A stretch of 10,501 nt of DNA, from the NCBI GenBank assembly GCA_009392075.1, contig VFHG01000087.1:1-10501 (forward strand), in the 5' to 3' direction. The notes under the pieces were generated by a model. That model made no database searches. It had not been told where the DNA came from and was given only the letters and a program-made list of their open reading frames with translations. This DNA comes from SAR202 cluster bacterium (GTDB lineage: Bacteria; Chloroflexota; Dehalococcoidia; UBA3495). This document shows positions 1 to 8,741 of this stretch, in pieces (positions within the stretch are counted from its first letter, which is position 1; every line of letters begins with the position of its first letter). The position numbers were made by a program, and so were the translations under genes.

Positions 1-1
1 C

Positions 2-806
2 GATGCCGATTACATTATCTTCTGTGGCGTGCATTTCATGGCGGAGACCGCCTGCATCCTGGCCGCCCCCACCAGGAAGTAATCCTGCCCAACATCACCG
101 CTGGCTGCTCAGTGGCTGACATGGCGCCGACGGAGGATGTTGAAGATGCCTGGGCCGACCTGGAAGAGGCCCTGGGACTGGTCGGAATAGTTCCTGCCAC
201 CTATATGAATTCCATCGCCGGGATAAAGGCCCTTTGTGGCCGGAACAACGGCATCGTTTGTACATCTTCAAACGCCAAGGCTGCTCTTGAGTGGGCCTTT
301 GAACAGGGCGAGTGTATGCTCTTCCTGCTGACCAACATCTGGGCCGAAACACGCCGGAGCAGCTCCGCCGAGCCAAGATGGTGCTCTGGCAGGGCCATTG
401 CTCCGTCCATACCCGGTTCACGACCAGCCAGATAAATGCGGCGAGGGCGCTGCACCCTGACATCAACATCATTGCCCACCCGGAATGCCCGATGGAAACC
501 GTCCAGGCCGAGGACATGGTCGGCTCCACTGAATTCATCCGGGAAAAGGTCAACTCAGCCCCGCCTGGCAGCAAATGGGGGATCGGCACCGAGGTCAGTC
601 TGGCCAACCGGTTAGCCATCAACAACCCAGATAAGACCGTTTTCTGCCTGGACTCGGTGGCCTGCCCCTGCTCCACCATGTACCGCGTACACCCCGCCTA
701 CGTGCTCTGGATGCTGGACGGCAAGGTCAATAACGAGATTAACGTGCCTGACGACATCAAGCGCGACTCCAAGATCGCCTTGAACCGGATGCCCTCTTTC
801 AGGTAG
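2..806 (+). pseudogene. nadA: Quinolinate synthase NadA, 3' part, with two frameshifts
   Basis: NadA is the [4Fe-4S] enzyme that condenses iminoaspartate with dihydroxyacetone phosphate to quinolinate in NAD synthesis. The 5' end lies outside the window. Three reading frames in series carry the conserved sequence. Frame 2 from position 2 encodes FCGVHFMAETA and runs into a TAA at 80. Frame 1 from 79 encodes AGCSVADM and VCTSSNA. Frame 3 from about 324 encodes PADQHLGRNTPEQL, MVLWQGHC, HPEC, GSTEFI, IGTEVSLANRLA and CPCSTMYRVHP, and ends with TAG at 804-806. All three expected cluster-cysteine regions (GCS, HPEC, CPC) survive. Each break is explained by one missing base, near 77-81 and within the TTCC run at 322-325. 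The rest is well conserved and nadC follows, so sequencing or assembly error is as likely as true decay. Confidence 0.85.
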
Positions 807-7167: not shown

Positions 7168-7761
7168 CTAGAAAATCCCTGCCTGCAAGTCCGCGATATA
7201 AGGCTCGAATGCCTGCTTCTGTTCGTCGGTCGAGGGCGGGTCGGCGGTCAGGACATCGTCGTAATAGTCCTGAGCAATCTGGCCTTGCTGCTCACGGTTG
7301 AAATCGCTGAACCGCTTGCCGCCCGGACGTTTCTTAGCCAGACCCTGCCAGCCTCCGTATTTGTAACCCTCGGTTTTCTGGGCTTGTACGGCCTGCGCGA
7401 GATAGACCGAGCCGTCCTTTTCGAACTGTTTCACGTGCACCATATCGTGCACCAGCAGTTTGAGGTGGCCCCGTGAATGATGTCCTTTTGCGGGAAGGTT
7501 GATGGTGTGGAATAAGGTCATCGCCCGGTCGCCGTTCATCTTGAAAACCAGGGCCATCACCCCGCCCTCCGCGATCCTGACTTTCGGGTACTGCACTGTC
7601 TCAGGGCCCAGAACCTGGCCAGACGCTTCCAACTCTTCTGCGGTCAGTACTGAGGTGTGGGTAAGTAGACGTAAAAGTACCTGCAAGATTTTGGGAATCT
7701 GCAGCAGATCGAGAATCTTGAAGACCGGTTTGGCCAGCAAAAGATACTCTTTGGCCAGCAT
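7168..7761 (-). CDS. Uncharacterised protein with an HDMVH motif (metallopeptidase-like)
   Basis: The 197-residue protein has a hydrophobic, helical N-terminus (AKPVFKILDLLQIPKILQVLLRLL, broken by charges, so not a clear signal) and a central LLVHDMVHVKQFEKDG (about 102-117). That resembles the HExxH-containing LLxHExxHVxQ segment found in uncharacterised metallopeptidase-like proteins, with Asp in place of the catalytic Glu. A basic KRPGGKRFSDFNREQQGQIAQDYY segment follows. I do not recognise a named family, and activity is doubtful given the Glu-to-Asp change. The Shine-Dalgarno is poor (GTGGGAT), but TAA closes the frame upstream, so this ATG is the only one possible. It is 128 bases downstream of the Sec-thioredoxin-like gene on the same strand. 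Confidence 0.7.
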   Translation of the reverse strand: MLAKEYLLLAKPVFKILDLLQIPKILQVLLRLLTHTSVLTAEELEASGQVLGPETVQYPKVRIAEGGVMALVFKMNGDRAMTLFHTINLPAKGHHSRGHLKLLVHDMVHVKQFEKDGSVYLAQAVQAQKTEGYKYGGWQGLAKKRPGGKRFSDFNREQQGQIAQDYYDDVLTADPPSTDEQKQAFEPYIADLQAGIF

Positions 7762-7889: not shown

Positions 7890-8741
7890 TCAGCCGCCGG
7901 CCAGTTCCGTGAGGTCGGAGAATACCTCGCGCCACTTGTCTGCGCCGCCGTCGGCGTAGCCAGCCCGGTAGGTAATGATTCCTTGGTGGTCCAGTGCGAT
8001 CTTGGTCGACTGCTGCAGAACCCGCAGCCCTTTTAGTACGTCTGTGTCTATCTCAGCTATCGGCCAGGGGTAACCCTCTTTGATCCGGTACGACTCCAAT
8101 TGGTCGATGCTCTCGAATGGGCTTTGGCCAATGGCATAGAAATCTACGCGGTCCGCGAACTCGGGGTAGACATTTTTCATGCTCCGTAACTCGGAGCGGC
8201 AGACGGCTCACCAAGTTGCAAAGAAGAATAGGAACACCGGCCGCCCTTGGCTCGCGAGCTGGGCCGTTGACTGCCGCGTTCCGTCAATTAACGTGAATTC
8301 AAAGTGCGAGACGGTGCTGCCGACGTCGATGCCAACCCCAGGCTGGTCTACGATGATCGCCGCTTTCGAGGGAGCGGCCGCCGAAGGCGAATTTGGAGCA
8401 GTTACAGGAGTCGCTGGAGGTGACGATTCCGGAGCCGTGGCGCCTGCGGGCGTAGATGAGTTAGCCGGCGCCGTCGAATTCGAATCGGTCTGAAGCGTCG
8501 CCGTGGCTCCGACCTCGGGGGTTGGAAGCGAATCCGATGCCTGAGCGGCTACCGCGCCACCCGCAGTATTAACCTCTGAAGTGGGCGCAGCTGTGTCTGA
8601 CAGTGTACGGGTCGAAACTTGCGCATCTCCTGAGGTTGATGGCGCAAGCGTCGAAGCTAACGGCGCCTTAGTTGCGGAGGCCCCACAAGCCAACAAGCCC
8701 AAAACAACGGCCATCACTGGCAAAGCAAATATTCGTGACAT
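7890..8741 (-). CDS. Thioredoxin-like lipoprotein with in-frame TGA (predicted selenocysteine) in a UxxC motif
   Basis: Residues 1-19 form a lipoprotein signal ending in the lipobox LLAC (Cys19). A long Ala/Ser/Thr/Pro linker (about 20-130) precedes a thioredoxin-fold domain of the TlpA/ResA or AhpC-TSA type (about 145-283): HFEFTLIDG, then FLFFFATW-[TGA]-AVCRSE. The TGA (8210-8208, residue 178) stands where the first redox Cys belongs, so the motif is UAVC with Cys181 as resolving residue. The frame runs on for 105 residues with normal domain sequence (KNVYPEFADRVDFYAIG, KIALDHQGIITYRAGYAD) to a TGA stop at 7892-7890. The usual cis-Pro is replaced by Ser245-Thr246. A stem-loop lies behind the internal TGA. 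The protein should face outward, working as a thiol or peroxide reductase. A nonsense mutation is the alternative. Confidence 0.85.
8181..8197 (-). promoter_or_regulatory. SECIS-like stem-loop in the thioredoxin-like lipoprotein mRNA
   Basis: On the minus strand GCTCCG (8197-8192), loop AGTTA, CGGAGC (8186-8181) is a perfect 6-bp hairpin. Its loop begins 17 bases after the TGA and has G as second base, meeting the bacterial SECIS pattern for distance, stem and loop. The encoded residues in it (RSELRS) are ordinary, so the stem is not explained by the protein motif. Confidence 0.7.

What the first reader, a model, noticed from the sequence alone, without database searches (positions are those of the whole stretch)
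7890..8741. Selenocysteine thioredoxin-like lipoprotein with a UxxC motif
Seen directly: a lipobox-bearing frame continues through TGA at 8210-8208 to a complete thioredoxin fold, and the TGA replaces the first Cys of W-C-x-x-C, leaving UAVC. Known: in thioredoxin-fold selenoproteins Sec commonly takes the attacking position in a CxxC/UxxC motif. Inference: a membrane-anchored Sec oxidoreductase outside the cell membrane, which is uncommon because most bacterial selenoproteins are cytoplasmic or exported dehydrogenases.
Basis: partly seen in the sequence, partly recalled or inferred. Interest (0 to 1): 0.93.

Follow-up and report, generated by a model that had tools for sequence, protein, structure and literature searches.

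The report
Hidden selenocysteine thioredoxin-like lipoprotein, SAR202 bacteria
A gene that standard annotation cuts short at a UGA codon is predicted to make one membrane-anchored thioredoxin-like redox protein with selenocysteine in its active site; the same UGA, and the RNA hairpin that would let it be read, are kept in dozens of related bacteria.

Summary
On the minus strand, ORF 8741-8208 runs into TGA 8210-8208. The frame continues to TGA 7892-7890, giving 283 residues: a lipobox, a low-complexity linker and a ResA/TlpA-like domain with W-U-A-V-C.

The TGA is very likely selenocysteine. All 62 family domains found in the window and 41 related loci carry TGA at this codon. Close full-length homologues carry WCPVC. 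Selection after the TGA is purifying. Stem bases of a UGA-proximal hairpin covary without exception (48 C-G, 14 T-A); the one cysteine form whose DNA I read has lost that hairpin. Relatives hold SelA, SelB, SelD and tRNA-Sec. The window's own genome is not held.

UxxC thioredoxin-fold selenoproteins were printed in 2005, so this is a new member of a known kind. The reaction is inferred; usual electron partners (CcdA/DsbD, VKOR, DsbB) are mostly missing in ten relatives.

More novel: sister genes in 13 related genomes read QLP[A/S]-UGA-UGA-[Gln/Gly]-stop, followed by a second such hairpin, a likely Sec-Sec tail.

The parts
8688..8741 (-). predicted lipoprotein signal peptide, residues 1-18 (MSRIFALPVMAVVLGLLA)
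   Evidence: sequence; loose lipobox pattern in 49 of 57 family proteins given a start; C19 nearly invariant in A1
8685..8687 (-). Cys19, predicted lipid-anchored residue
   Evidence: 90% or more conserved in the 25-row alignment A1
8331..8684 (-). Ala/Pro/Ser/Thr-rich linker, residues 20-137, low model confidence
   Evidence: pLDDT about 50 for most of it; poorly conserved
7902..8330 (-). ResA/TlpA-like thioredoxin-fold domain, residues 138-280
8208..8210 (-). in-frame TGA, predicted selenocysteine 178 (W-U-A-V-C)
   Evidence: TGA in 62 of 62 family domains; Cys in close full-length homologues
8199..8201 (-). Cys181, predicted resolving cysteine of UxxC
   Evidence: invariant in A1
8181..8197 (-). 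predicted bSECIS hairpin GCUCCG-AGUUA-CGGAGC, +14 to +30 counting the U of UGA as +1
   Evidence: invariant GAGTT and compensatory stem pairs across 62 sites; 6-bp stem in 57 of 62
8190..8192 (-). Glu184 codon, always GAG in the Sec forms; matches ResA Glu80 by its spacing from the second Cys (number taken from the ResA E80Q entry title)
   Evidence: GAG in 62 of 62
8007..8009 (-). Ser245, at the place of the thioredoxin cis-proline
   Evidence: column holds Ser 57, Met 9, Ala 5, Thr 1 and no Pro in 72 family rows; opposite Pro of 2m72 in the profile alignment
7890..7892 (-). terminal TGA, read as the real stop
   Evidence: orthologues end here with TAA, TAG or TGA

Best explanation
ORF 8741-8208 and its continuation past TGA 8210-8208 very likely form one gene whose UGA is decoded as selenocysteine, making a predicted membrane-anchored, ResA/TlpA-like protein with the active-site motif W-Sec-A-V-C that would exchange disulfides outside the cell membrane. 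Proposed steps. (1) Ribosomes translating the mRNA meet UGA; a hairpin with its loop at +20 to +24 (U of UGA as +1) would recruit SelB with Sec-tRNA. The hairpin is shown by comparison; the recruitment is inferred from how bacterial selenoproteins are known to be made. (2) The protein is predicted to be exported and lipid-anchored at Cys19, with the redox domain held off the membrane by a 118-residue linker. (3) Sec178 would attack a disulfide or another oxidised group on an extracytoplasmic partner, and Cys181 would resolve the bond, leaving a Sec-Cys selenenylsulfide. (4) An unidentified donor would reduce it again. Substrate, direction and donor are not shown.
Against: The window's own genome is not held, so its Sec machinery is untested. 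Alone, the window's hairpin is not significant: 18 of 200 shuffles fold as well and 19% of synonymous resamplings do. Over 58 distinct sites the mean z is -1.1, 34 of 58 are below -1, and RNAalifold gave only a 3-bp consensus on ungapped columns. The selD loops lie about 10 nt further from their UGA. The cis-proline of thioredoxins is replaced in all 72 family rows. Usual partners are scarce in ten clade genomes: DsbD_TM 2, VKOR 0, DsbB 0. Neighbouring genes differ between the clades looked at. Lipidation and export were not tested.
Confidence: 0.8

Rival explanations
1. The protein is a selenoprotein, but works mainly as an extracytoplasmic thiol peroxidase: Sec178 would be oxidised by peroxides and Cys181 would resolve it.
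Confidence: 0.2
2. The TGA is an ordinary stop: the gene makes a short lipoprotein, and the downstream half is a separate or decaying ORF.
For: Standard reading gives this, as do 55 of 69 database entries. The downstream piece has an ATG at 8180.
Against: The truncated product would lack most of the thioredoxin fold and its redox motif. The sequence after the TGA is under purifying selection in the same frame. The codons between the TGA and ATG 8180 are conserved too. Cys homologues are continuous.
Confidence: 0.02
3. The TGA is a sequencing or assembly error for a Cys codon.
For: The window does show a frame break in nadA, so errors are possible.
Against: TGA at the same codon in 62 of 62 domains, nearly all from other genomes.
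Confidence: 0.01
4. TGA is reassigned to an ordinary amino acid throughout this genome.
For: It would also keep the frame open.
Against: In 19 related loci, 96 of 191 ORFs of at least 150 aa (spurious ones included) end with TGA. This gene and several orthologues end with TGA too. tRNA-Sec, SelA, SelB and SelD are present in relatives, and the TGA sits exactly at a catalytic Cys position.
Confidence: 0.01

Closest known systems
UxxC 'Prx-like' and 'thiol-disulfide isomerase-like' selenoproteins (Sargasso Sea 2005, PMC1088965; Table 1 of PMC13188914, where cd02966, PF00578 and PF08534 UxxC forms are listed)
   Same: Selenocysteine replaces the first Cys of a CxxC in a TlpA/AhpC-TSA-like thioredoxin fold; found in marine metagenomes; Cys homologues exist.
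   Different: The passages I read name no lipoprotein form and no SAR202/Chloroflexota form. I could not compare with the deposited sequences, so identity with one of those printed families is not excluded.
ResA / TlpA / CcmG thiol-disulfide oxidoreductases
   Same: Fold, WCxxC position, Glu three residues after the second Cys, extracytoplasmic membrane anchor (predicted).
   Different: Sec for the first Cys; no Pro at the cis-Pro place in 72 of 72 family rows; NCBIfam scores far below the cut-offs (ResA 37.8 against 170 bits); DsbD_TM relatives in only 2 of 10 clade genomes.
Pneumococcal Etrx2 surface lipoprotein thioredoxin (2yp6, 4hqz)
   Same: Exposed lipoprotein with a TlpA-like domain (entry titles and matches).
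   Different: Cys enzyme; 16-17% identity over the aligned domain.
C-terminal Sec-tail selenoproteins (KCU-star, SaoC, listed in PMC13188914)
   Same: Compare with the sister proteins, not the window protein: selenocysteine at the C-terminal end.
   Different: The sisters would have two adjacent Sec plus one residue, and a third Sec in the thioredoxin domain.

Membership tests
bacterial selenoproteins | in-frame UGA aligned with Cys of homologues, with coding conservation on both sides | tested here: met
bacterial selenoproteins | bSECIS hairpin just after the UGA | tested here: met
   comparative evidence strong; the window's hairpin alone is not significant
bacterial selenoproteins | SelA, SelB, SelD and tRNA-Sec in the same organism | tested here: inconclusive
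   own genome not held. Ten clade genomes: SelA 8, SelB 7, SelD 10, tRNA-Sec at 60 bits or more 7; all four in 6
bacterial selenoproteins | selenium shown in the protein | not testable with these tools
   needs 75Se labelling or mass spectrometry
TlpA/ResA-like oxidoreductases | thioredoxin fold of the ResA/TlpA type | tested here: met
TlpA/ResA-like oxidoreductases | WCxxC redox motif | tested here: met
   W-U-A-V-C with Sec for the first Cys; Cys in homologues
TlpA/ResA-like oxidoreductases | cis-proline facing the active site (recalled as a thioredoxin-fold feature) | tested here: not met
   Ser245 in the window; no Pro in 72 of 72 family rows, Pro in both outgroup rows; opposite Pro of 2m72. 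It works like the family rather than being a typical member
TlpA/ResA-like oxidoreductases | score over the curated NCBIfam cut-off for ResA, DsbE or TlpA | tested here: not met
   37.8 against 170; 31.4 against 359; 20.3 against 230 bits
TlpA/ResA-like oxidoreductases | CcdA/DsbD-type electron conduit in the genome | tested here: inconclusive
   DsbD_TM in 2 of 10 clade genomes, 10 of 14 control genomes; own genome not held
TlpA/ResA-like oxidoreductases | membrane anchor outside the cytoplasm | tested here: inconclusive
   loose lipobox pattern in 49 of 57 proteins; 7 of the other 8 seem to have an N-terminal membrane helix; prediction only
peroxiredoxins | PxxxT/SxxC peroxidatic motif (recalled) | tested here: not met
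   F174 and U178 at the Pro and Thr places

The most novel reading that the evidence does not exclude
The family has a two-gene form in 13 of the 39 family genomes that carry it. The upstream gene's protein carries three selenocysteines: one in W-U-P-[E/H]-C and two side by side at the very C-terminus, QLP[A/S]-Sec-Sec-[Gln/Gly]-stop, a vicinal diselenide tail that could act as a swinging redox arm for the neighbouring W-U-x-x-C lipoprotein, as the Cys-Sec tail does in thioredoxin reductase (recalled). The tail is read by a bSECIS lying beyond the stop codon: a conserved GGCGUC-GUU-GACGCC hairpin whose loop begins at +21 from the second UGA in 10 of 13 copies, exactly where GUU begins in the main bSECIS.
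Probability: 0.7. Interest if true: 0.8.

Novelty: new member of a known kind. Interest (0 to 1): 0.55.

Why it matters
The gene and its family, found here in SAR202/Dehalococcoidia-type genomes, are recorded in the protein database mostly as fragments cut at the active site (55 of 69 entries), so their redox role is invisible to annotation-based surveys. They put selenium use into a predicted cell-surface thiol redox system in which nearly all members found keep Sec. The codon-level covariation gives a clean, testable bSECIS consensus for this lineage, and the Sec-Sec tails of the sister genes would be an unusual chemical design that can be tested directly in a heterologous host.

Tried and rejected
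Single-sequence folding of the window hairpin was not significant by itself. RNAalifold on ungapped columns gave only three pairs, probably because 26 of the 62 sites carry a one-base bulge; I therefore counted pairs directly.

Genomic context gave no partner. Neighbours differ between the clades looked at: in the window a TPR protein and a 197-aa protein without a confident Pfam match; elsewhere PcrA/UvrD, ThrS, an SBP_bac_5 protein, a release-factor-like protein, or a DsbH/DUF255 thioredoxin-like protein. Rfam and ARAGORN found nothing in the window. The window protein reached no NCBIfam cut-off.

Searching for Cys forms of the Sec-Sec-tailed paralogue found two short proteins that look frame-disturbed and no Cys tail. 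Class-wide, two genomes of 393 matched it at E 1e-20; one is the Cys form G207 and one a TGA form, and I did not check their tails.

Paper searches: for SAR202, Dehalococcoidia or Chloroflexota selenoproteins; for lipoprotein selenoproteins; for adjacent UGAs or Sec-Sec tails. I judged these from listings, plus passages of PMC5649159, PMC9751293 (a glycine reductase of another phylum) and PMC11650866 (selenium only in a reference title). No listed paper reports this family. PMC5649159 does say that selA and selB COGs co-occur in most sponge-symbiont bins of various phyla; SAR202 bins are among its bins.

The tree needs 4 changes of the Sec/Cys label, but its deep forks are open, so I claim no direction of change. 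My first count of the cis-Pro place used the 25 rows of A1 (all Ser); the wider count shows Met, Ala or Thr in 15 of 72 rows, and the report uses that.

Full report

Relatives keep the TGA. A genome scan found one close relative, in a record titled SAR202 cluster bacterium bin.363 (Chloroflexota, Dehalococcoidia), with W-TGA-PVC. In the 50 genomes of that genome's family, 49 had some match; in 39 a match with E of 2.8e-12 or better holds an in-frame TGA (my count; two of the listed TGA matches also run over a TAG). I fetched 40 stretches around these. A profile search of the window, L001 and those 40 found 62 domains, all with TGA at the attacking position. Since the stretches were fetched because of a TGA match, this count is biased towards TGA. 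The class-wide sample is not: of 393 genomes, 19 had a match at E 1e-15, 18 with the TGA and one (G207) with Cys (at most six candidates were scored per genome).

The protein database tells the same story. Of 69 homologues (in one search only the 7999 candidates sharing most words were scored), 55 end at the Trp before the TGA, 9 close full-length ones read WCPVC, 2 distant ones have another CxxC, and 3 fit neither. After the TGA, dN/dS of the window against ten orthologues lies between 0.08 and 0.37. The highest value is from the closest pair, which has few changes; the 55 codons before the TGA gave 2.0 in that pair and 0.07-0.25 in the other nine. Several dS values are above 1, so these ratios are rough.

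The RNA signal. After each TGA lies a hairpin, in the window GCUCCG-AGUUA-CGGAGC at 8197-8181. Alone it is not significant (18 of 200 shuffles as stable; 19% of synonymous resamplings). Across the family it is: the Glu codon is GAG in 62 of 62 (background 61%), the next Leu codon is TTA or TTG in 61 of 61 (background 22%; one site has Phe), and the third base of the codon before GAG is C whenever the codon after Leu is CGG or CGC (48) and T whenever it is CAG or CAA (14), with no exception. These are compensatory changes, one side of them at a wobble base. Kinship inflates the Fisher p of 3e-14. A six-pair stem forms in 57 of 62, in 26 of these with a one-base bulge; the other five have one mispair. 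The single Cys form with DNA at hand, G207, reads TGT ... GAG CTC GAG CGT and has lost loop and stem, whereas two Sec forms from outside the family sample (L090, L092) keep GCC GAG TTG CGG.

The machinery. In ten window-clade genomes SelA was found in 8 and SelD in 10, each best match with an in-frame TGA, in G041 split in two pieces. SelB was over cut-off in 7 (G039, G042 and G043 miss it), tRNA-Sec at 60 bits or more in 7 (G039, G040 and G042 miss it); all four in 6. In the wider family 40 of 50 genomes have tRNA-Sec at that level (my count; the tool's own cut-off passes 44), and SelB passes in 43 of 49. The nine selD genes fetched have a hairpin with a GUC or GUU loop after their TGA, though at +31 instead of +21. 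The window's own genome is not held.

What it does. The fold, the W-U-x-x-C and the Glu three residues after the second Cys say ResA/TlpA-like disulfide exchange; Sec would make the attacking residue a better nucleophile and would form a selenenylsulfide with Cys181. This is inferred. Two facts pull the other way. The thioredoxin cis-proline is replaced in all 72 family rows, Cys forms included: Ser 57, Met 9, Ala 5, Thr 1, with Pro only in the two outgroup rows. And the usual electron conduits are rare: DsbD_TM in 2, VKOR in 0 and DsbB in 0 of ten clade genomes, with matches in 10, 3 and 6 of 14 control genomes. A thiol-peroxidase role is therefore kept as the main rival. The neighbours do not name a partner.

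A more unusual relative. In 13 related genomes a second family gene lies just upstream of the lipoprotein gene. Its frame reads ...QLP[A/S]-TGA-TGA-[CAG 4, CAA 1, GGA 5, GGG 3]-[TAG 11, TAA 1, TGA 1], then a hairpin GGCGUC-GUU-GACGCC or a variant, then the next gene's start. One hairpin is changed on both sides of a pair (L088, GGCGCC-GUU-GGCGCC). The loop is GUU in 11 of 13, and begins at +21 from the second TGA in 10 of 13, the same place as GUU in the main hairpin. Of 96 TGA-ended ORFs of at least 150 aa in 19 loci of this set (L070-L088) none is followed by a second TGA (spurious ORFs are included). The exact pattern occurs once in each of 9 of 49 genomes and its reversed control never; the other four tails differ from it in loop or stem. 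The 13 proteins form one clade (100/99). So the tail is likely translated as Sec-Sec-Gln or Sec-Sec-Gly. Against it: no Cys version of the tail was found, the 13 are one clade and not independent, and a conserved hairpin between two genes could serve another purpose. The window's clade shows no such gene in the loci I read.

Novelty. UxxC Prx-like and thiol-disulfide-isomerase-like selenoproteins were printed in 2005 (PMC1088965, passages) and again in GOS data and reviews (PMC2398784, PMC9312934, PMC13188914; passages). The word counts of those calls give 'lipoprotein' 0 times in all four papers, and 'Chloroflex-' 0 times in the three where I searched it (not PMC1088965). My paper searches for SAR202, Dehalococcoidia or Chloroflexota selenoproteins found no report of this family, and those for Sec-Sec tails or adjacent UGAs found none in bacteria; these were judged from listings and a few passages. 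The library lacks most subscription papers and I could not fetch the deposited UxxC sequences, so the window protein is best called a new member of a known kind, with the Sec-Sec sisters as the candidate new variant.

Noticed in passing
L072, L073, L077-L086 and L088: C-termini of the upstream paralogues (e.g. L072:6329-6985 minus): TGA-TGA-(Gln/Gly)-stop tails with a conserved downstream GGCGUC-GUU-GACGCC hairpin: likely C-terminal Sec-Sec tails.
   Followed up: partly
window 1-806: NadA (quinolinate synthase) is split over two overlapping frames, 1-435 and 312-806, matching profile positions 66-139 and 142-293: an indel error in the assembly or a broken gene.
   Followed up: partly
L062-L066, L068: Tandem arrays of two or three UxxC family genes; one type seems anchored by an N-terminal membrane helix without a lipobox, and the motif is T/I/Y-U-x-x-C instead of W-U-x-x-C.
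   Followed up: partly
window 7168-7761 (minus): A 197-aa protein with HDMVH, next to the selenoprotein gene; by eye a similar ORF follows it in L001 (8863-9435). No confident Pfam or NCBIfam match.
   Followed up: no
database protein P0019: One homologue (391 aa) has lipase/SGNH-type Pfam domains (PF13472, PF00657) before the domain that is cut at the Trp.
   Followed up: no
L061:2989-5202 and L077:2533-4581: A DsbH/DUF255 thioredoxin-like protein lies beside the selenoprotein genes, a possible redox partner in those clades.
   Followed up: no
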